64,000 nt of DNA, from NCBI RefSeq assembly GCF_000266945.1, contig NC_018025.1, positions 3,972,001 to 4,036,000 on the forward strand. Reading direction: 5' to 3'. The notes under the pieces were generated by a model, which ran no database searches, was not told the DNA's origin, and saw nothing but the letters and a program-made list of their open reading frames with translations. This stretch comes from Desulfomonile tiedjei DSM 6799 (GTDB lineage Bacteria > Desulfobacterota > Desulfomonilia > Desulfomonilales > Desulfomonilaceae). The translations under genes were made by a program, and so were the position numbers. Shown here piece after piece: positions 25,825 through 62,617 of the stretch (the first letter of the stretch is position 1; each line of letters starts with the position of its first letter).

Positions 25825-26502
25825 ATGAGCACAAACGCTTTCTTGGATTATGAACTGGTGACCCGTCGAGTGAAGGTTGGCAATGAATGGCAGACCAAGG
25901 TGTTCCCTGTGGTCGGTGGCCGACTGAGAATCGTACATGAGAGCAATGACCACCTGAGCATCGAAACTCAAATCGTCAAGCTGGAGTCCGACTTCGTGGT
26001 CGTTCGGGCTACCGTGGAAACAACCAAAGGCAAATTCAGCGGTACCGGCACTGCGTCGACCCAAAGAGATGCGAGGCTTGCCGATGCTCTGGTGGAATTG
26101 GCGGAGACTCGGGCGATTGCGAGGGCTCTTCGGTTTGGCGGCATCGGAAGCGAATACACCTCGGCAGAAGAGGTTTCTCATGTCGTGGCAGAACCTGAGC
26201 CCGCGACGGGAGGAAATGAAAGCAAAGTGGGCAAACCCGTGTTTGAGCCGCAGGAGAGCGAGAACAAACAAGAAACAAAGCAACCGGTTCAACCCAAGAA
26301 TGGTGGCAACGGAAACGGAGGCCGGGCCACGGGGGCTCAATGCAGAGCCTTGTATGCCCTTTCCAAAAAGGCCAAGATGTGCGACGAGGACTTGGAGTCC
26401 GTGCTCAGGCCGTTGAATGCCAACCGCTTCGAAGACCTCACCTTGTCCGATGCCAGCCGCTTGATCCAGTACTTCCAGACCCAGGTCCAGGTCGCCGCCT
26501 AA
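25825..26502 (+). CDS. Putative single-strand annealing/recombination protein (element 1 copy)
   Basis: GAAGGAGAA precedes the ATG. Residues about 5-125 form a conserved domain with NEWQTKVFPVVGGRLRI, KGKFSGTGTASTQRDARLAD and AETRAIARALRFGGIG followed by EYTSAEE. A low-complexity linker and a C-terminal helical mini-domain follow (ALYALSKKAK...FEDLTLSDASRLI). The element 2 protein at 60573 has the same two domains, with most positions of the first domain identical by eye. The layout (core, linker, small C-terminal domain) and the nuclease gene downstream are typical of phage annealing proteins paired with an exonuclease. The exact family is uncertain, so the function is inferred from context. 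Confidence 0.6.
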   Translation: MSTNAFLDYELVTRRVKVGNEWQTKVFPVVGGRLRIVHESNDHLSIETQIVKLESDFVVVRATVETTKGKFSGTGTASTQRDARLADALVELAETRAIARALRFGGIGSEYTSAEEVSHVVAEPEPATGGNESKVGKPVFEPQESENKQETKQPVQPKNGGNGNGGRATGAQCRALYALSKKAKMCDEDLESVLRPLNANRFEDLTLSDASRLIQYFQTQVQVAA

Positions 26503-26572
26503 ACTTCCTCAGATGAAACCATTATCACCGCTCGCAGGTGGGCGAGTGCCCAAACTCTTCCGGGGGAGAAGT

Positions 26573-26710
26573 ATGTACAGGTTTACACGATTCCTTCGTC
26601 AACTATTCGAGGAAAGAAAACACTGGAGGAGAAGAAACCGCAAACTGTTCCGGTATCGTAGCCGTTTGACCTACCGGCCGGGTCTGCGCCAAAAAAGGAG
26701 AAGACGATGA
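26573..26710 (+). CDS. Tiny Arg-rich protein (45 aa), conserved in both elements
   Basis: GGGGGAG lies 6 bases upstream of the ATG and the stop overlaps the nuclease start (ATGA). The protein is extremely basic: MYRFTRFLRQLFEERK, then HWRRRNRKLF and a final RQKRRRR. The element 2 counterpart at 61366 shares the start (M-x-R-x-T-x-FL), the aromatic-Trp-Arg pattern (NYWRNR/HWRRRNR), the position between the same two genes, and the same 4-base overlap. Such conservation argues for a real gene. It probably binds nucleic acid or the nuclease. I know of no named family. Confidence 0.65.
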   Translation: MYRFTRFLRQLFEERKHWRRRNRKLFRYRSRLTYRPGLRQKRRRR

Positions 26711-27483
26711 ACGACCAGGGGCAAGAGAAGCCTCATCTCAGTTACAGCCAGATCAACACGTATTGCACGTGTCCCTTGAAATACCGCTTCCACTACATTG
26801 ACCGGATCGAGCCGCCCTTCACCGCAGCGCCACTTGCGTTCGGCTCTGCTATCCATGAGGCCGTGGGAGCCTTCTACCAGAGTTGCCTTGAAGGTGATCC
26901 TCTGTCCGCGGATCAGATTCACGACGTGTATCGTCAGGCGTGGGAAAGCCATTCCAAGGAACGACCGATACGTTTCTCGAACGGTGACAGTGAGGACAGT
27001 CTCACGACCAAGGCAAAGCGGATGCTTGAGGTGTTCCACGCAGAATTCGATCCGGCAGTTCAGATCGTCGGGATCGAGGAACCCTTCGAGGTGGATCTCG
27101 GCAAGCGCATGCCACCACTGGTGGGTTGGATTGATGTGGTGGAACAGGCCCCGGACGGCACCGTAACCGTAGCGGATCTGAAGACCGCATCAAAACGCTA
27201 TGCAGACCAGACCGTCCATTCCAACTTGCAGCTCACGTGCTATTCGTTGGGAGCACAATCCTTAGGCTTCAACGGGGACACTCGCTTTCGACTGGACGTG
27301 CTCTTGAAGACCCAGAATCCCGAGGTGATACGGTACGAGACAACCCGAACCAACGCTGATCGGGACCGCTTCCTCAAGCTGGTGAAGAGCGTGTGGCAGG
27401 GCATAAGGAAGGAAATCTTCTTCCCCAAATCGGATTGGCAGTGCGGGCAATGTCCCTTTGCCGATCCTTGTAAGGAGTGGTAG
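26707..27483 (+). CDS. PD-(D/E)XK nuclease, RecB/Cas4-like (element 1 copy)
   Basis: The 258-aa protein has the RecB-family nuclease core. GSAIHEAV carries the motif I His (about residue 52), GWIDVVE has the metal-binding Asp (about 140), VADLKTASK is the D-x-K motif (about 158), and QLTCYSLG follows. A Cys in YCTCPLKYRF near the start and C(x2)C(x5)C at the end (WQCGQCPFADPC) match the iron-sulfur layout of Cas4 and AddB nucleases. It should degrade or trim DNA ends to feed the adjacent annealing protein. The gene overlaps the Arg-rich gene by ATGA. A homologue is at 61509. Confidence 0.85.
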   Translation: MNDQGQEKPHLSYSQINTYCTCPLKYRFHYIDRIEPPFTAAPLAFGSAIHEAVGAFYQSCLEGDPLSADQIHDVYRQAWESHSKERPIRFSNGDSEDSLTTKAKRMLEVFHAEFDPAVQIVGIEEPFEVDLGKRMPPLVGWIDVVEQAPDGTVTVADLKTASKRYADQTVHSNLQLTCYSLGAQSLGFNGDTRFRLDVLLKTQNPEVIRYETTRTNADRDRFLKLVKSVWQGIRKEIFFPKSDWQCGQCPFADPCKEW

Positions 27484-27492
27484 GAGGGCGAG

Positions 27493-27753
27493 ATGGCCAC
27501 AAAAGCGAAACCGGCAGCAGCCGTGGAAGAGCCTGCCCCGGGTACGGTCGAAAGACACATATCTTTGGAGATGGAAAGAGGGAGCGTAGCCGTATCTCGC
27601 AACGGGCTCACCCTTTCCGTGTCAGGCAAGAACGTGCAGTTGCGCAAGCAGTCCCCTCTCAACCTGTCGTTCGACTCCGGCGAGGTCGAGTACGACGACG
27701 GCGAGATCCAGGTCAAGGCTGAAGGAGATGCGATTAAGCTGCAACTGGATTGA
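27493..27753 (+). CDS. Unknown 86-aa beta-rich protein
   Basis: AGGAGG precedes the ATG, 9 bases after the nuclease stop. After an Ala/Pro/Glu-rich start, residues 25-86 alternate hydrophobic and charged residues in short strands (SVAVSRNGLTLSVSGKNVQL, GEVEYDDGEIQVKAEGDAI), suggesting a small beta-sandwich. There are no cysteines. Element 2 has a different, helical protein (62309) at this place. A Rho-independent terminator follows about 20 bases later, so this may be the last gene of the recombination operon. Confidence 0.55.
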   Translation: MATKAKPAAAVEEPAPGTVERHISLEMERGSVAVSRNGLTLSVSGKNVQLRKQSPLNLSFDSGEVEYDDGEIQVKAEGDAIKLQLD

Positions 27754-27772
27754 TTCATCACGGTTTCATCAT

Positions 27773-27810
27773 GAGCCCGGCTGGTCTTCGGATCAATCGG
27801 GCTCTTTCAT
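27773..27810 (+). terminator. Rho-independent terminator after the recombination module
   Basis: GAGCCCG (27773-27779) pairs with CGGGCTC (27798-27804), followed by TTTCATT. It separates the recombination genes from the methyltransferase operon that starts at 27824. Confidence 0.7.
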
Positions 27811-27823
27811 TGGGAGGATACCC

Positions 27824-28837
27824 ATGCGCACAGCAGGCCGGATGAAGATGGGCTATTACCCGACTCCTCCGGGAGTTGTGGAACAGATAAGGAAATGTTT
27901 TTCTTTTCCCCGCGAGCCGTTCACCGCCTTGGACCCGTGCTGCGGCGAGGGCATCGCATTGGAACAACTCGCCAGCGGCAGCCATGCCGTCACCTACGGT
28001 GTGGAGCTGGATGAGCATCGAGCGGGAGCAGCCCAAGATCGCATTCAGAACGTTCTGAAGTGCGGAATCGAGGAGACACGGATCGCCCACCAGTCCTGCT
28101 CTCTTCTCTTTCTCAACCCGCCTTACGATGAAGCGACGTGCGAGGAGGATGCGGACACCAAGACCGAGCGCCAAGAAAAGGCGTTTCTCCGAATGACGGT
28201 ACCGTATTTGGTTCCCGGTGGGGTGCTCGTCTACATCATTCCCCAGACACGCCTCAGCGCAGGCATCGCTCGGTTGTTGGCATCCCGTTTCGAAGATATC
28301 AAAGTCTTTTGTTTTCCTGATCCCGAATACGACGACTTCCGGCAGGTGGTGGTGATGGGTGTCCGCAAGACGGGAAATTCCTTGGATGAGGGGTTGGCTT
28401 TGAACCTTCAGAATGTTCCGAACCGCAAGCTTAAGCCCTTGCCGGAGACTGACACGGCACAGTACTCAGTTCCCCCCGCCGGACCCTTGAAGTTGTTCCG
28501 CTCGACGGTAATCGACCCTGAAGAACTGGCGAAGCAGATGGATCAATCTCCTTTGTGGCGCAGGTTCTATGCAATGACCACTCAGAGTGCGTTGAAATTG
28601 CCCCGCCCGCCTCTGCCTTTGCACTCGGGACACTTGGGTCTGCTGTTGGCGGCGGGAAAGCTCGACGGAGTGGTGGGTGAAGGCGCGGATCGCCATGTGG
28701 TGAAAGGCAAAGTAACCAAGGTCGTTTCCCGGGTGGAGGAGTACAAGGGAGACGTGTTGGAGCAGCGGGAGCTGGATCGGTACGTGGTCTCCATCAAGAT
28801 TCTCAATCGTAACGGGGAAATCCGTGAGCTGACCTGA
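27824..28837 (+). CDS. DNA N6-adenine methyltransferase-like protein (DUF6094 type)
   Basis: The start at 27824 follows GGGAGGA. The 337-aa protein opens with YYPTPPGVVEQI, has the SAM-binding motif I at ALDPCCGEGIALEQL (about residue 38), the acidic GVELDEHR, and the catalytic NPPY (about 94). NPPY is the gamma-class amino-methyltransferase signature, so adenine-N6 methylation is most likely. VPGGVLVYIIPQ follows. No restriction enzyme is next to it. It is followed by a 196-aa unknown protein and an SNF2 helicase, a trio I associate with other plasmids and integrative elements. Confidence 0.75.
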   Translation: MRTAGRMKMGYYPTPPGVVEQIRKCFSFPREPFTALDPCCGEGIALEQLASGSHAVTYGVELDEHRAGAAQDRIQNVLKCGIEETRIAHQSCSLLFLNPPYDEATCEEDADTKTERQEKAFLRMTVPYLVPGGVLVYIIPQTRLSAGIARLLASRFEDIKVFCFPDPEYDDFRQVVVMGVRKTGNSLDEGLALNLQNVPNRKLKPLPETDTAQYSVPPAGPLKLFRSTVIDPEELAKQMDQSPLWRRFYAMTTQSALKLPRPPLPLHSGHLGLLLAAGKLDGVVGEGADRHVVKGKVTKVVSRVEEYKGDVLEQRELDRYVVSIKILNRNGEIRELT

Positions 28838-28849
28838 AGGGGCGCCATC

Positions 28850-29440
28850 ATGTTGGACAGAATCGTCTTTGAACCGTACGGGCGAGGCATCAAGGTATCG
28901 GTCTACACGGACCGGTATGCCTACAACCCGGAGGACAATTCATTGGTGTTCATTTCCTTGGCCGGTACCGAGCAGGCGGTAAAGGCCCTATCATCCGCGA
29001 TTATCGGGGGCCAAACCGTGAGCATCAGGGGTGCAGACAATTCGGAAATCCAGCTGGACGGGCACCCTGCAACCCATTTCCGAGTCTTGTCCACGAGGCT
29101 TCCCGGCGGCGCTGTGCATCAACTGGTGGCGGACACCAGGTTCTTCGTGAGTGACGAGTCCGGGGCCTATCTCGTGGTCATCCCTCAACACGAGGATGTA
29201 TCCAAGGTTGTCTATAGCCAAGTTCTTACCCACTTGGCTTCTCCGCTACTTCCCGAGTGGAGCGCATGGATCTGCAAACAAATGAAGCGACAGGATCTTA
29301 TGCGGCAGATGGAAGGAACTCTGAAAGTGATCGAGGTCTCGGCAAATGAGTCAAGTGTGGATGAAATCGTATCGAAAGGAGTACGGACAGGACGAATCCG
29401 TCTCGATAACAGAGGAGGAGCGTATGCTGGAATCAATTAA
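28850..29440 (+). CDS. Unknown protein between methyltransferase and helicase (196 aa)
   Basis: The gene starts 12 bases after the methyltransferase stop and overlaps the helicase start by 17 bp, so all three are probably translated together. It is a mixed alpha/beta soluble protein without cysteine clusters beyond one WICKQ. Visible segments include FEPYGRGIKVSVYTDRYAYN near the start and LVADTRFFVSDESGAYLVVI near residue 95. I do not recognise the family. The tight coupling suggests it works with the helicase or methyltransferase. Confidence 0.6.
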   Translation: MLDRIVFEPYGRGIKVSVYTDRYAYNPEDNSLVFISLAGTEQAVKALSSAIIGGQTVSIRGADNSEIQLDGHPATHFRVLSTRLPGGAVHQLVADTRFFVSDESGAYLVVIPQHEDVSKVVYSQVLTHLASPLLPEWSAWICKQMKRQDLMRQMEGTLKVIEVSANESSVDEIVSKGVRTGRIRLDNRGGAYAGIN

Positions 29441-31484
29441 CGACGTGAACGGATACTTGCATCAGTTTGGAGGGGCTCTGGCTCAGAAGACACAAACCGA
29501 GGCCGAGCCGCTTTTCAAACCTGGGGACTCGTGGCACCCACGTATGCATCAGCTCAAACGGAAGCCCTTTCAAGCGCAAGCCGATGCGATCCAAGGGGCT
29601 GTCGAAACGTTACGCACGCACAATCACGTGATGTGCATCGGAGAAATGGGTGTGGGCAAGACGCTCATCGGAGCCGCTGTGCCGTACATCATGGAGAACG
29701 GTCATCCTCCGCGTGTCTTGGTCATGTGCCCCGGCCATCTCACGCGCAAGTGGGTGCGAGAGGTGAGAGAAACCGTGCCGGGCGCTGAGGCCGACATCAT
29801 CACGAGTCTGTCCGCTGTGCAGGCCATTGATCCTCGTGAACCGCACACGGGCCTGCGCTACTACGTGGTGAGTAAAGAGCGGGCAAAACTGTCCTATGCG
29901 TGGCGGCCCGCTTTCAATCTCCGTCGCGGGATTCCGGTGTGCCCCGATTGCGGAGCGACCGTGGTGGATCGAGACGGAGTGGAGGTGAGTGTTGAAGCTC
30001 TACAGCATCGGAAGGCTCGTTGCGGTACATGTGGAGCTGCACTGTGGCAGGCGGACAATACCCGGTTCCGCCGATTCTCCATTGCGGATTACGTCAAGCG
30101 ACACTTGAAGGGGTATTTCGATTTCTTCATCTGTGATGAAGTCCATGAGATGAAGGGGGGAGACACTGCTCAGGGCAATGCCTTCGGGACTCTGGCGAGT
30201 GCTTGCAAGAAGACCATAGCGCTTACGGGAACCCTATTGGGAGGGTACGCCAGTCACATGTTTCATCTCCAGTACCGGATGAGCCCACGGGCGATGAACG
30301 CGGACGGATTCTCCTACGGCAACCGCATGAACTTCGTCAATCGTTACGGAGTGCTCGAAAAGGTCACCCGCTACTATCCCGGTGATGACAACATCTGCTC
30401 CAAGGGCCGCAAGGGAGCGACGGTTACGCGGGAGAAGCCCGGCGTGAGCCCTGCAATCTTCTCGAATCATTTGATGGGCTCCACGGTGTTTCTCCATTTG
30501 CAGGACATTGCCGTGGATCTGCCGAGCCTCAAGGAAGAAGTGGTTCCGGTTGCTATGGAAGACGACCTGTCCGTTGCCTACAAGGACCTTGAGCACAGGA
30601 TAGGCTCTGAGATGAAACGACTCCTGGTCCAAGGATCTCGGCGGCTCCTCGGCGCGTATCTCAATACCCTGCTCTGCTATACCGACCGACCTTTTCACAA
30701 TGAGCCCGTGGTCGATCCTGCGAATGGAAACGTCATTGCAGAGCCTGCTCACTTGGCTTGGGATCGCACGTACCCGAAAGAGCGAGAGCTTCTGAGGATA
30801 GTTCAGGGAGAGATCTCTCGCAACCGGCGGTGTTTCGTGTACTGCACGTACACCAACACAAAGGACGTGACGGGTCGTCTCAAAGAGATTCTCGCCCGCC
30901 GGGGCATCTGTGCCGAGATCATCAGGTCATCGGTTAAGCCGGAACAGCGTGAGGAGTGGCTGCGGCAGAAGGTGAGAGACGATGTACAGGTGGTGATCGG
31001 GAATCCGATACTCGTCCAGACCGGCTTGGATCTGCTCGACTTCCCCACTATCATCTTCTATCAGACCGGATATTCCGTTTTCACGCTGAGGCAGGCCTCC
31101 CGCAGATCCTGGCGTATCGGACAGGAGGAGCCTGTACGGATTCACTATTTGCACTACGCGGGAACCATGCAGGAGCGTGCTTTGGAGCTGGTGGGTAGAA
31201 AGCTCTCGGCTTCTTTGGCCATTGAAGGCAAGCTCACCGATGATGGTCTCGCGTCCATGTGTGGTGGAGAAGACATGACGCTGCTATTGGCCAAGGCTCT
31301 GGTAGGAGGGACGCATATCCAGGGTGCGGAGTCCGTGTGGCGAGCGCTGAACCAGCTGCGAGAAGCGGCCAGCGACAAGAATGTGATCCCCTTTCTCCGG
31401 AAGAACTGGTCTCTGGAGTTATTGGAAGAGCGTTCGGATATGCTGAGGGAAGATTTCCTGGACATCCTCGCGCACGCTCTTTGA
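29424..31484 (+). CDS. SNF2-family helicase/ATPase with zinc-finger insert
   Basis: I place the start at 29424, behind GAGGAGGAG, giving 686 residues. The N-lobe has Walker A in CIGEMGVGKTLIG (about residue 75) and a DEVH box in FFICDEVHEMKGG (about 240). Between them is a four-cysteine insert (CPDCG and CGTCG, about 170-205). The C-lobe has FVYCTYTNTKDV and the SNF2 signature RQASRRSWRIGQ (about 565). Such proteins translocate on double-stranded DNA to move or strip bound proteins. With the adjacent methyltransferase it may act in element maintenance or defence; neither is shown. Confidence 0.85.
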   Translation: MLESINDVNGYLHQFGGALAQKTQTEAEPLFKPGDSWHPRMHQLKRKPFQAQADAIQGAVETLRTHNHVMCIGEMGVGKTLIGAAVPYIMENGHPPRVLVMCPGHLTRKWVREVRETVPGAEADIITSLSAVQAIDPREPHTGLRYYVVSKERAKLSYAWRPAFNLRRGIPVCPDCGATVVDRDGVEVSVEALQHRKARCGTCGAALWQADNTRFRRFSIADYVKRHLKGYFDFFICDEVHEMKGGDTAQGNAFGTLASACKKTIALTGTLLGGYASHMFHLQYRMSPRAMNADGFSYGNRMNFVNRYGVLEKVTRYYPGDDNICSKGRKGATVTREKPGVSPAIFSNHLMGSTVFLHLQDIAVDLPSLKEEVVPVAMEDDLSVAYKDLEHRIGSEMKRLLVQGSRRLLGAYLNTLLCYTDRPFHNEPVVDPANGNVIAEPAHLAWDRTYPKERELLRIVQGEISRNRRCFVYCTYTNTKDVTGRLKEILARRGICAEIIRSSVKPEQREEWLRQKVRDDVQVVIGNPILVQTGLDLLDFPTIIFYQTGYSVFTLRQASRRSWRIGQEEPVRIHYLHYAGTMQERALELVGRKLSASLAIEGKLTDDGLASMCGGEDMTLLLAKALVGGTHIQGAESVWRALNQLREAASDKNVIPFLRKNWSLELLEERSDMLREDFLDILAHAL

Positions 31485-60365: not shown

Positions 60366-60515
60366 ATGAACTATCAGCGTCAACACGATGGCTCGGGAAT
60401 CGGCTGGATTATCCTGCTAGTCCTGCTCTACATCATCTTTAACCCCATTCCTGGTCCCATAGACGATGCGGCGGCGGTGGCCATCGGAGGATACCAAGCT
60501 CTGAAGAGGATATGA
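60366..60515 (+). CDS. Tiny membrane protein (49 aa)
   Basis: AAAGGAGG precedes the ATG. After a polar start (NYQRQHDGSG) residues 12-28 form one hydrophobic helix (GWIILLVLLYIIFNPIPG), followed by an Ala-rich end. It lies 57 bases before the annealing-protein gene, the same position as the tiny membrane peptides in element 1, though without clear sequence similarity to them. Confidence 0.5.
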   Translation: MNYQRQHDGSGIGWIILLVLLYIIFNPIPGPIDDAAAVAIGGYQALKRI

Positions 60516-60572
60516 CGCACGCACGCCTTAAATCTAAAGAGAAACAGAATACTTCACAAAAGGAGCACCACT

Positions 60573-61277
60573 ATGGCCACAAATGGAAATGGGCAGTTCA
60601 GAGAGGACGAACTGGTAAGCCGAAAGGTCAAAGTCGGCCAAGAATGGCAAACCAGAATATTCCCGATCATTGGCGGGCGCTTGCGGATTCTCCACGAAAG
60701 CAACGATAACCTCAGCATCCAGACCGATATTGTCAGGTTGGAGCCTGACTTCGTGGTCGTAAAGGCAGCCATTGAAAGCCAGAGGGGAAAGTTCAACGGC
60801 ACAGGAACGGCATCAGGCCAAAGAGATGCGAGGCTGGCAGACTCCCTGGTTGAATTGGCTGAGACCAGGGCCATAGCAAGGGCGCTGCGCTTCGGCGGGA
60901 TAGGCGTTGAGTACACATCAGCAGAAGAAATCTCACACACCACCGCCACAGAATCTCACAATGAGCAAACCACAAGCAAAGCGCTACAATCAGTGTTCCC
61001 TGAAGGCAATGGCAACGGCAAACCCGAAGCGAAAGCATCGAGTGGCACTGCAGATGCACCTGCCCAGGGAAACGGAGATACGCCGCAACGTTGCGGCAAC
61101 GGTCGGGTCACTCAAGCGCAGGTGAGAGCTCTTTTCGCTCTCAGTAAAAGGGCAAACTATCACGATGACGACATTGCCCAAATGCTCGCACCATTCCAGG
61201 TCTCCCGCTTTGAAGACCTGCCCCGAGAAGCAGCCAGCAAATTGATCGGCGCTTTGCAGACCGAAGCCGCAGCGTAA
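60573..61277 (+). CDS. Putative single-strand annealing/recombination protein (element 2 copy)
   Basis: AAAGGAG precedes the ATG. The 234-aa protein repeats the architecture of the 25825 gene: QEWQTRIFPIIGGRLRILHE, RGKFNGTGTASGQRDARLAD, AETRAIARALRFGGIG with EYTSAEE, then a Gly/Thr/Asn-rich linker and RALFALSKRANYHDDDIAQM with FEDLPREAASKLIGALQ. The linker differs completely while both folded parts are conserved, which argues that both proteins are functional. The third GCCGCAA palindrome lies in the linker coding region. The function as an annealase is inferred from layout and from the following nuclease. Confidence 0.6.
   Translation: MATNGNGQFREDELVSRKVKVGQEWQTRIFPIIGGRLRILHESNDNLSIQTDIVRLEPDFVVVKAAIESQRGKFNGTGTASGQRDARLADSLVELAETRAIARALRFGGIGVEYTSAEEISHTTATESHNEQTTSKALQSVFPEGNGNGKPEAKASSGTADAPAQGNGDTPQRCGNGRVTQAQVRALFALSKRANYHDDDIAQMLAPFQVSRFEDLPREAASKLIGALQTEAAA
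61082..61097. repeat. GCCGCAA(CG)TTGCGGC palindrome, copy 3
   Basis: A perfect 16-bp palindrome within the linker region of the annealing-protein gene. Two of the three copies of this motif lie inside genes, in parts where the protein sequence is not conserved. Confidence 0.65.
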
Positions 61278-61365
61278 ACAAATCCCATAATCACAATCAA
61301 AGGCAAACCAGGGGGCGGGGCGCTACAGCTGCGTACCCGTCCTGCTACACAAAAGGAGAAGACCC

Positions 61366-61512
61366 ATGTTCAGATTGACGTCATTTCTTCAGCCGCAGAA
61401 GCCCAGGCCCAGAAACAGAAGGCTTGTTCGTGAACTCCGCCGTCTCATCCACCAACGGAATTATTGGCGCAATCGAACCCGTGAACTGCGGGGGGGAAGG
61501 AGGAAAAGATGA
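61366..61512 (+). CDS. Tiny Arg-rich protein (48 aa), element 2 copy
   Basis: AAAGGAGAA precedes the ATG and the stop overlaps the nuclease start by ATGA. The protein reads MFRLTSFLQPQKPRPRNRRL, then REL, RRLIHQRNYWRNRTRELRGG and RRKR. Start pattern, central aromatic-Trp-Arg motif, basic end, length and gene position all match the 45-aa protein at 26573. It is too basic for a typical folded domain and likely binds DNA or RNA. Confidence 0.65.
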   Translation: MFRLTSFLQPQKPRPRNRRLVRELRRLIHQRNYWRNRTRELRGGRRKR

Positions 61513-62297
61513 AACCCGCATTCGATTACGATCACTTCTCGCATTCACAGCTCAGCTGCTACACGCAGTGCAGTCTGAAATATCGGTTCTCCTACATAGA
61601 AAACCTGGAACCCGAGTTCACTTCTTCAGCCCTGGTGTTCGGGTCATCCATACATTCGGGTATACAAGCGTATCTGCAAAGTGTTTTGGAAGCAGACCCG
61701 CTTAGGGCTGACCAATTGGCCGATGTTTTTCGCAGTGAATGGACAGGCTTTGGTGGACCGCCAGTCCGTTACTCGGGTAGAGAAACAGAGAATGGGCTTC
61801 AAACCAAAGCGCAAGAGCTGTTCTCCCTGTTCGTGGATCACTATGACCCTGCATCCGAGGTGATAGCCGTAGAGGAGTCGTTTTCCATCGATCTGAACGA
61901 CAGGATAGAAGTGGCATGCTGCGGCCCTCTGCCTCCGTTTGTGGGGTACATCGATGCCATCATTGGAAAGGACGGGTCCACGGCGCTGATAGACTATAAG
62001 ACCAGTTCACGCAAGCCTAATGGTGATCTCAATCCCATGCAGCTTGTAGCCTACAGCATGGGGGCGTCAGTCCTGGGATACGAGCCGAATCAGCTTGATT
62101 ACAGGTTTGAGTACCTGATCAAAACTGCAAAGCCCGATTTCGTCCTGTGTCCTGTGAAAATCCGTGATCATGACCGTGAACGATTCCTGAAGATTGTGGC
62201 CAGGATATGGAAGGCGATCCGCTCGTCGATCTTCTATCCGAACCCAGGCTATCTGTGTAGTTCTTGCGGGTACCAAATATGGTGCAAGGAATGGTGA
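61509..62297 (+). CDS. PD-(D/E)XK nuclease, RecB/Cas4-like (element 2 copy)
   Basis: The 262-aa protein has the motif I His in FGSSIHSGI (about residue 48), the Asp in VGYIDAIIG (about 145), the D-x-K motif in ALIDYKTSSRK (about 160) and MQLVAYSMG. One Cys in YTQCSLKYRF near the start and CSSCGYQIWCKEW at the end give the four-Cys iron-sulfur pattern of Cas4/AddB-like nucleases. AGGAGGA lies upstream of the ATG. It should process DNA ends together with the annealing protein. It shares LKYRF, DPLRADQ-like and terminal CKEW segments with the element 1 enzyme. Confidence 0.85.
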   Translation: MKPAFDYDHFSHSQLSCYTQCSLKYRFSYIENLEPEFTSSALVFGSSIHSGIQAYLQSVLEADPLRADQLADVFRSEWTGFGGPPVRYSGRETENGLQTKAQELFSLFVDHYDPASEVIAVEESFSIDLNDRIEVACCGPLPPFVGYIDAIIGKDGSTALIDYKTSSRKPNGDLNPMQLVAYSMGASVLGYEPNQLDYRFEYLIKTAKPDFVLCPVKIRDHDRERFLKIVARIWKAIRSSIFYPNPGYLCSSCGYQIWCKEW

Positions 62298-62308
62298 AGG
62301 AGGACAAC

Positions 62309-62617
62309 ATGGCCAAGAAAGACAGTCGCAGCGTCACCGACATCGTTGCGTTTCAACCCACAGCCAATGTCACCGTGCTTCCTCCTGACTCAGGAGTGGT
62401 AGGACAGTTCCTCGATGATACCCGCAACATGCTCAAGGCCCGAGCTATGAGGATGAGCGGCTTGCTCAAGCGCATCAATGAGTCAGGCCAAAGGACTGAG
62501 CAATTGTTACGGCAGGCTGCGGAAAGAATGGAGTCCGCAGAAGCTGCGCTTGGTGCTCAGTTCAGGAGTGAGGGACTGTTGCCTGGGAACGATGAAGACC
62601 AGGAGGCGGAAGGCTGA
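62309..62617 (+). CDS. Unknown helical protein after the nuclease (102 aa)
   Basis: The start at 62309 follows AAGGAGG. Residues about 38-85 are a long helix or coiled coil (LDDTRNMLKARAMRMSGLLK, ESGQRTEQLLRQAAERMESA), with an acidic end. It holds the same position as the beta-rich 86-aa protein of element 1 but is unrelated in sequence, so this slot varies between the elements. Function unknown. A hairpin terminator follows 46 bases later. Confidence 0.55.
   Translation: MAKKDSRSVTDIVAFQPTANVTVLPPDSGVVGQFLDDTRNMLKARAMRMSGLLKRINESGQRTEQLLRQAAERMESAEAALGAQFRSEGLLPGNDEDQEAEG

What the first reader, a model, noticed from the sequence alone, without database searches (positions are those of the whole stretch)
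26573..26710. A 45-48-aa Arg-rich peptide conserved between elements
The frame at 26573 and its partner at 61366 share start pattern, an aromatic-Trp-Arg core, a basic end, ribosome-binding sites and the same 4-base overlap with the nuclease gene. Such a gene is easily missed by annotation. It could be a nuclease cofactor, DNA condenser or inhibitor.
Basis: seen in the sequence. Interest (0 to 1): 0.7.

Follow-up and report, generated by a model that had tools for sequence, protein, structure and literature searches.

The report
Small arginine-rich gene in recombination cassettes
A tiny gene for a 43-48-residue, arginine-rich helical protein is real and conserved: it sits between a DNA-annealing-type protein and a Cas4-like nuclease in several repeated cassettes of one bacterial genus, but what it does is not yet shown.

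Summary
Frames at 26573 (45 aa) and 61366 (48 aa) lie between an ERF/SSAP-like gene and a Cas4-like PD-(D/E)XK nuclease, each with a ribosome-binding site and an ATGA overlap with the nuclease. This genome has four copies (one on its 27-kb plasmid); a second Desulfomonile genome has two. The 61366 group (4 sequences) is clearly coding: pS 0.65-0.93 against pN 0.06-0.19, with the reverse in other frames. The 26573 group (2 sequences) gives no codon-level signal alone, but its protein matches the 61366 group beyond composition (0 of 100,000 shuffles). No member was found in any other genus, plasmid or phage searched. The gene is optional (six of ten readable modules). One copy is not coupled to the nuclease, and peptide divergence follows the ERF-like gene, not the nuclease, so 'nuclease cofactor or inhibitor' is not favoured. 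Best reading: a trans-acting basic amphipathic helix that binds nucleic acid for the annealing side of a recombination cassette. That function is inferred, not shown. A hairpin in the same mRNA slot makes an RNA-binding role the main rival.

The parts
26573..26710 (+). Arg-rich small ORF, 45 aa (group A peptide)
   Evidence: translation; orthologue in second Desulfomonile genome, L046; matches group B beyond composition
61366..61512 (+). Arg-rich small ORF, 48 aa (group B peptide)
   Evidence: translation; purifying selection among 4 copies
26562..26568 (+). ribosome-binding-site-like GGGGGAG of the 26573 ORF
   Evidence: sequence
61353..61358 (+). ribosome-binding-site-like AAGGAG of the 61366 ORF
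   Evidence: sequence
25825..26502 (+). ERF/SSAP-like gene upstream of group A peptide (225 aa)
   Evidence: PHROG 11717, 7e-14, unknown function; predicted fold resembles phage annealing proteins, low confidence
60573..61277 (+). ERF/SSAP-like gene upstream of group B peptide (234 aa)
   Evidence: PHROG 11717, 4e-12; aligned family A3
26707..27483 (+). Cas4-like PD-(D/E)XK nuclease (258 aa), overlaps peptide stop by 4 bases
   Evidence: Pfam PDDEXK_1 2.5e-37; conserved H, D, DxK, QxxxY and four Cys columns
61509..62297 (+). Cas4-like PD-(D/E)XK nuclease (262 aa), overlaps peptide stop by 4 bases
   Evidence: Pfam PDDEXK_1 1.1e-27
61312..61343 (+). stem-loop between the ERF-like stop and the peptide's ribosome-binding site
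   Evidence: fold of the intergenic stretch; model R1 finds the same slot in the other own-genome modules and nothing else at E < 0.2
60366..60515 (+). small membrane-type ORF (49 aa) at the start of the 61-kb module
   Evidence: translation; homologue at the same place in L024
62309..62617 (+). about 102-aa protein after the nuclease in the 61-kb module, no family match
   Evidence: homologues in plasmid and L024 modules; no Pfam, NCBIfam or PADLOC match
27493..27753 (+). 86-aa protein after the nuclease in the 26-kb module
   Evidence: homologue in L042

Best explanation
The two frames are members of one small protein family, 43-48 aa, net charge about +15 to +18. It has a short N-terminal motif M-[FYL]-R-[FL]-T/M-x-[FL], in group B a Pro/Lys/Arg linker, then a basic amphipathic helix with a Leu/Leu/Trp/Leu stripe. 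The gene is an optional accessory of a small recombination cassette: ERF/SSAP-like annealing protein, peptide, Cas4-like exonuclease. Most likely the peptide acts in trans as a nucleic-acid-binding accessory of the annealing step: the basic faces hold DNA (or RNA) and the hydrophobic stripe docks on a protein, most likely the ERF-like protein. Shown: existence, conservation, coding constraint in group B, A-B homology, position, optional presence, co-divergence with the ERF-like gene. Inferred: the helix (AlphaFold), nucleic-acid binding, the partner, and the role in annealing.
For: Group B: pS 0.65-0.93 versus pN 0.06-0.19 in the core; other frames carry stops and the reverse pattern. A-B homology. 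All six copies sit between the same two genes. Helix 17-47, pLDDT about 90 over residues 21-40. Charges and pairwise identities: plasmid and L049 nucleases are 91% identical but peptides 67% and ERF-like proteins 63%; window-61k and plasmid nucleases are 39% but peptides 68% and ERF-like 73%. In L004 the peptide is uncoupled from the nuclease by about 85 bases, so it need not act as a leader for it. The ERF-like model's best viral fold matches include annotated annealing proteins, ERF, RecT and Sak3.
Against: No experiment and no family match. ERF membership of the neighbour is not shown by sequence: Pfam ERF does not match, the model is low confidence (mean pLDDT 63) and solved-structure matches are weak (best SSAP, 80a-Sak, E 0.03). 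The identity comparison rests on five related loci. Modules without the peptide exist, so it is not essential in cis.
Confidence: 0.4

Rival explanations
1. RNA-binding regulator: the Arg-rich helix binds the stem-loop that lies just before it in the mRNA and controls translation, stability or transcription of the cassette, in the manner of lambdoid N peptides on boxB.
For: A stem-loop lies in the same slot in most modules; the R1 model finds only these slots in the whole genome; L004 has one copy before the peptide and another before the nuclease. Arg-rich motif peptides fold on hairpin loops in phage N proteins (PMC11480772).
Against: Stem-loops also occur in modules without the peptide, and in distant genomes with no peptide (L059, L052). 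The group A slot has no R1 match and its orthologue folds no better than shuffles. Single-sequence z-scores are modest.
Confidence: 0.2
2. Partner of the nuclease: cofactor or inhibitor, made just before it by translational coupling.
For: ATGA overlap in five of six copies.
Against: The peptide goes with two nuclease clades about 40% identical while staying 68-77% identical itself, and its divergence does not follow the nuclease; the L004 copy is not coupled; close relatives of both nuclease types lack it (L005, whose nuclease is 69% identical to the 61k one; L002).
Confidence: 0.15
3. Leader peptide: its translation, not its product, matters, by coupling or by stalling of the ribosome on basic codons.
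For: Overlap with the nuclease start; the ribosome-binding site of the nuclease lies inside the peptide's last codons.
Against: Amino acids are conserved while codons, including Arg codons, change freely in group B; L004 is uncoupled.
Confidence: 0.12
4. The 26573 frame is a chance open frame, and only the 61366 group is a gene.
For: Five substitutions between species, four of them nonsynonymous; another frame shows three synonymous and two nonsynonymous. The high DNA identity could come from gene conversion, since the first half of the ERF-like gene is also 99.7% identical.
Against: N-terminal motif and core both match group B (p 7e-5 and 4e-5), in the same slot with a ribosome-binding site and the same overlap.
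Confidence: 0.1

Closest known systems
Phage recombination modules: single-strand annealing protein (ERF/RecT/Sak type) plus exonuclease
   Same: An annealing-type protein and a PD-(D/E)XK exonuclease-family gene stand side by side
   Different: A tiny Arg-rich gene lies between them; the cassettes are repeated several times on the chromosome and once on a plasmid; the nuclease is Cas4-like; Pfam ERF is not matched
Lambdoid phage N proteins (Arg-rich motif on boxB hairpin)
   Same: Short basic helix with a tryptophan; an RNA stem-loop lies close by
   Different: No sequence match; no role in antitermination tested; the stem-loops also occur without the peptide
Cas4 / PDDEXK_1 nucleases (the downstream neighbour)
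   Same: Pfam PDDEXK_1; Cas4 models match below cut-off; four conserved cysteines as in iron-sulphur Cas4 nucleases
   Different: Sits with an annealing-type protein; phage exonuclease families match better; no CRISPR genes seen in the stretches read

Membership tests
Single-strand annealing protein + exonuclease recombination module | exonuclease-family nuclease gene beside the annealing protein gene | tested here: met
   PDDEXK_1 2.5e-37 and 1.1e-27; phage exonuclease families phrog_69 and phrog_1218
Single-strand annealing protein + exonuclease recombination module | upstream protein belongs to a known annealing-protein family (Pfam ERF, or a confident fold match) | tested here: inconclusive
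   No Pfam ERF match in the genome; fold matches to annotated SSAP/ERF/RecT/Sak3 models, E about 1e-5 to 5e-4 with low TM-score, from a low-confidence model
Single-strand annealing protein + exonuclease recombination module | strand annealing and exonuclease activity | not testable with these tools
   needs biochemistry
Lambda N-type Arg-rich motif RNA-binding peptide | short Arg-rich helical segment | tested here: met
   12-17 Arg in 43-48 residues; predicted helix
Lambda N-type Arg-rich motif RNA-binding peptide | peptide and cognate transcript hairpin occur together | tested here: not met
   hairpin without peptide in L005, L002, L050; group A slot has no model match. A peptide acting in trans on other modules is not excluded
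Lambda N-type Arg-rich motif RNA-binding peptide | sequence relation to known N proteins | tested here: not met
   no match in Pfam, PHROGs (best 0.3, unknown function) or solved structures
Protein-coding gene (61366 group) | excess of synonymous over nonsynonymous change in this frame only | tested here: met
Protein-coding gene (26573 group) | excess of synonymous over nonsynonymous change in this frame only | tested here: inconclusive
   one synonymous, four nonsynonymous among five changes

The most novel reading that the evidence does not exclude
A genus-restricted family of mini-proteins that load or regulate an annealing protein, working together with a structured RNA element in the same mRNA, inside repeated recombination cassettes: a new kind of three-part recombination module (annealing protein, Arg-rich helper, Cas4-like nuclease).
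Probability: 0.15. Interest if true: 0.65.

Novelty: new variant of a known kind. Interest (0 to 1): 0.4.

Why it matters
Small basic proteins in recombination operons are easily lost to annotation and rarely tested. If this one helps an annealing protein, it would be a natural minimal helper for strand annealing, of use in recombineering. It also shows that an annealing-protein/nuclease cassette can gain and lose a tiny extra gene, and that this gene travels with the annealing protein, not with the nuclease.

Tried and rejected
Nuclease-specific partner: lowered by presence with two nuclease clades and by divergence following the ERF-like gene. Leader peptide with conserved rare Arg codons: lowered because Arg codons change freely. 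RNA structure inside the coding region as the reason for the high identity in group A: folds no better than shuffles (z 0.57 at 26538-26715, z 1.63 at 61330-61520). Known RNA family: no Rfam match in the loci or window. Relatives elsewhere: none in 395 phylum genomes at E 0.001 apart from the own genome, none in the other 16 family genomes, plasmids or phages (only weak chance-like hits), none in IMG/VR. A viral contig (L054) has a 49-aa basic ORF right after an ERF-like gene with RREKRRQTNQRNYR: core p 5e-4 but no N-terminal match; left as a lead. An ORF of L027 that scored next is an unrelated frame in a chance locus. RNA model R1 caught only 4 base pairs because the stems differ in sequence, so it is mainly a sequence model; no formal covariation test was made. 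Literature searches gave no paper on such a peptide.

Full report
Where it lies. The window is G000:C1:3972001-4036000 of a 6.5-Mb genome in two contigs, 6,500,104 and 26,923 bases. The relatives found are titled Desulfomonile; the sizes fit what I remember of Desulfomonile tiedjei DSM 6799 and its plasmid, which is memory, not a test.

The observation. Each has a ribosome-binding-site-like sequence and a stop that overlaps the nuclease start as ATGA. A nuclease search of the own genome gave seven places. Reading the slot before each showed the small frame in four: L001 (26573), L006 (61366), L003 (plasmid, 47 aa) and L004 (43 aa). It is absent in L005 and L002, where the ERF-like gene is followed directly by the nuclease; L007 is a truncated nuclease. 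A second Desulfomonile genome has two more copies, L049/L024 (45 aa) and L046/L042 (45 aa). L047 (same genome) and L050/L057 (another genus of the family) have both neighbours without the frame; L048 has a long insertion after the ERF-like gene, and L051 runs off its contig. So six of ten readable modules in the family carry the gene (L001, L006, L003, L004, L049, L046 against L005, L002, L047, L050).

Is it a gene. In the 24-codon core of the four group B sequences, every pair shows pS 0.65-0.93 and pN 0.06-0.19 in the peptide frame; the other two frames hold stops and show the reverse. That is codon-level purifying selection. Group A is only two sequences with five differences, four of them nonsynonymous. 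Its 138 bases are 96.4% identical, against 86.7% in the nuclease (pS 0.44) and 73% in the intergenic DNA before it. Either the DNA is constrained at all positions or a short tract was exchanged; the first 360 bases of the ERF-like gene are 99.7% identical too, so exchange in this region is plausible. Group A's claim to be a gene therefore rests on its likeness to group B. With composition kept, the N-terminal seven residues reach p 7e-5, the core 4e-5, and both together 0 of 100,000 shuffles; an HMM local score alone gives 71 of 20,000. I put the coding status at about 0.97 for 61366 and 0.85 for 26573.

Anatomy. The consensus is M-[FYL]-R-[FL]-[TM]-x-[FL], a Pro/Lys/Arg linker (missing in group A), then an LxRELRRLxxQRNYWRNRxREL-like core and a basic tail. 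AlphaFold gives one helix, residues 17-47, confident over 21-40. Reading the core as a helix, L20, L24, L27, W34 and L41 fall on one stripe and basic residues cover the rest (inference). The tail is partly dictated by the nuclease's ribosome-binding site, which it contains, but the uncoupled L004 copy also ends in RRRTR.

Neighbours. The downstream protein is a PDDEXK_1 nuclease with invariant H50, D143, D157-x-K159, Q175-xxx-Y179 and C22, C246, C249, C255 in six copies, the pattern of Cas4-type iron-sulphur nucleases (established knowledge); Cas4 models match below their cut-offs. The upstream protein matches PHROG 11717 of unknown function. I call it ERF/SSAP-like because its predicted fold matches viral proteins annotated as annealing proteins, ERF, RecT and Sak3. 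The model is low confidence, Pfam ERF does not match and solved-structure matches are weak, so this name is provisional.

Who is the partner. Peptide identity follows the ERF-like protein, not the nuclease: plasmid against L049, nuclease 91, ERF-like 63, peptide 67 percent; window-61k against plasmid, 39, 73 and 68; window-61k against L004, 42, 70 and 77. The peptide sits with two nuclease clades. In L004 it is followed by about 85 bases with a second stem-loop and a separate ribosome-binding site before the nuclease. These facts favour a trans-acting product tied to the annealing side or to nucleic acid in general. The sample is five related loci, so this is a lean, not a proof.

The stem-loop. 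Between the ERF-like stop and the next gene most modules hold a strong stem-loop with different stem sequences, after a conserved AATCACAACCA-like stretch. An RNA model finds only the six known own-genome slots, two of them in L004, and nothing else better than E 0.2; those slots built the model, so the result of interest is the absence of others. Hairpins also occur in modules without the peptide and in distant genomes. An Arg-rich helix beside an RNA hairpin recalls lambdoid N on boxB (PMC11480772), but membership is not met: no sequence relation and no one-to-one pairing.

Distribution. No member was found in 395 genomes of the phylum apart from the own genome, in the family apart from the two Desulfomonile, or in plasmids, phages or IMG/VR. 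Some of these tools may leave out records near the own genome. Within what was searched the family is limited to one genus.

Verdict. It is an optional accessory of a known kind of recombination cassette. Its function is open; a nucleic-acid-binding helper of the annealing protein is my first choice (0.4), an RNA-binding regulator second (0.2), a nuclease partner third (0.15), a leader peptide fourth (0.12).

Noticed in passing
61312-61343; L003, L004 (two copies), L005, L002, L050: Strong stem-loop with varied stems after a conserved AATCACAACCA-like stretch, between the ERF-like stop and the next gene; no Rfam match; also present without the peptide.
   Followed up: partly
26545-26710 versus L046: Segment almost identical between two species also at synonymous sites, while the nuclease has pS 0.44 and the DNA before it is 73% identical; gene conversion or extra DNA-level constraint.
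   Followed up: partly
60366-62617; plasmid L008 1921-4167; L004, L005, L002: A self-contained operon (small membrane-type ORF, ERF-like, optional peptide, Cas4-like nuclease, about 105-aa protein, terminator-like repeat) is repeated several times in the genome, with nuclease types shuffled between copies.
   Followed up: partly
L048, about 320 bases after the ERF-like stop: Insertion that begins like a group II intron (GTGCGCC...) downstream of an ERF-like gene in the second Desulfomonile genome.
   Followed up: no
L054 5590-5739: Viral contig with a 49-aa basic ORF directly after an ERF-like gene; RREKRRQTNQRNYR resembles the peptide core (p 5e-4) but the N-terminus does not match.
   Followed up: partly
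27728-31484: The 26-kb module continues with a DUF6094 methyltransferase (PADLOC mad2-like, 1e-17) and an SNF2-type helicase, unlike the 61-kb module.
   Followed up: no
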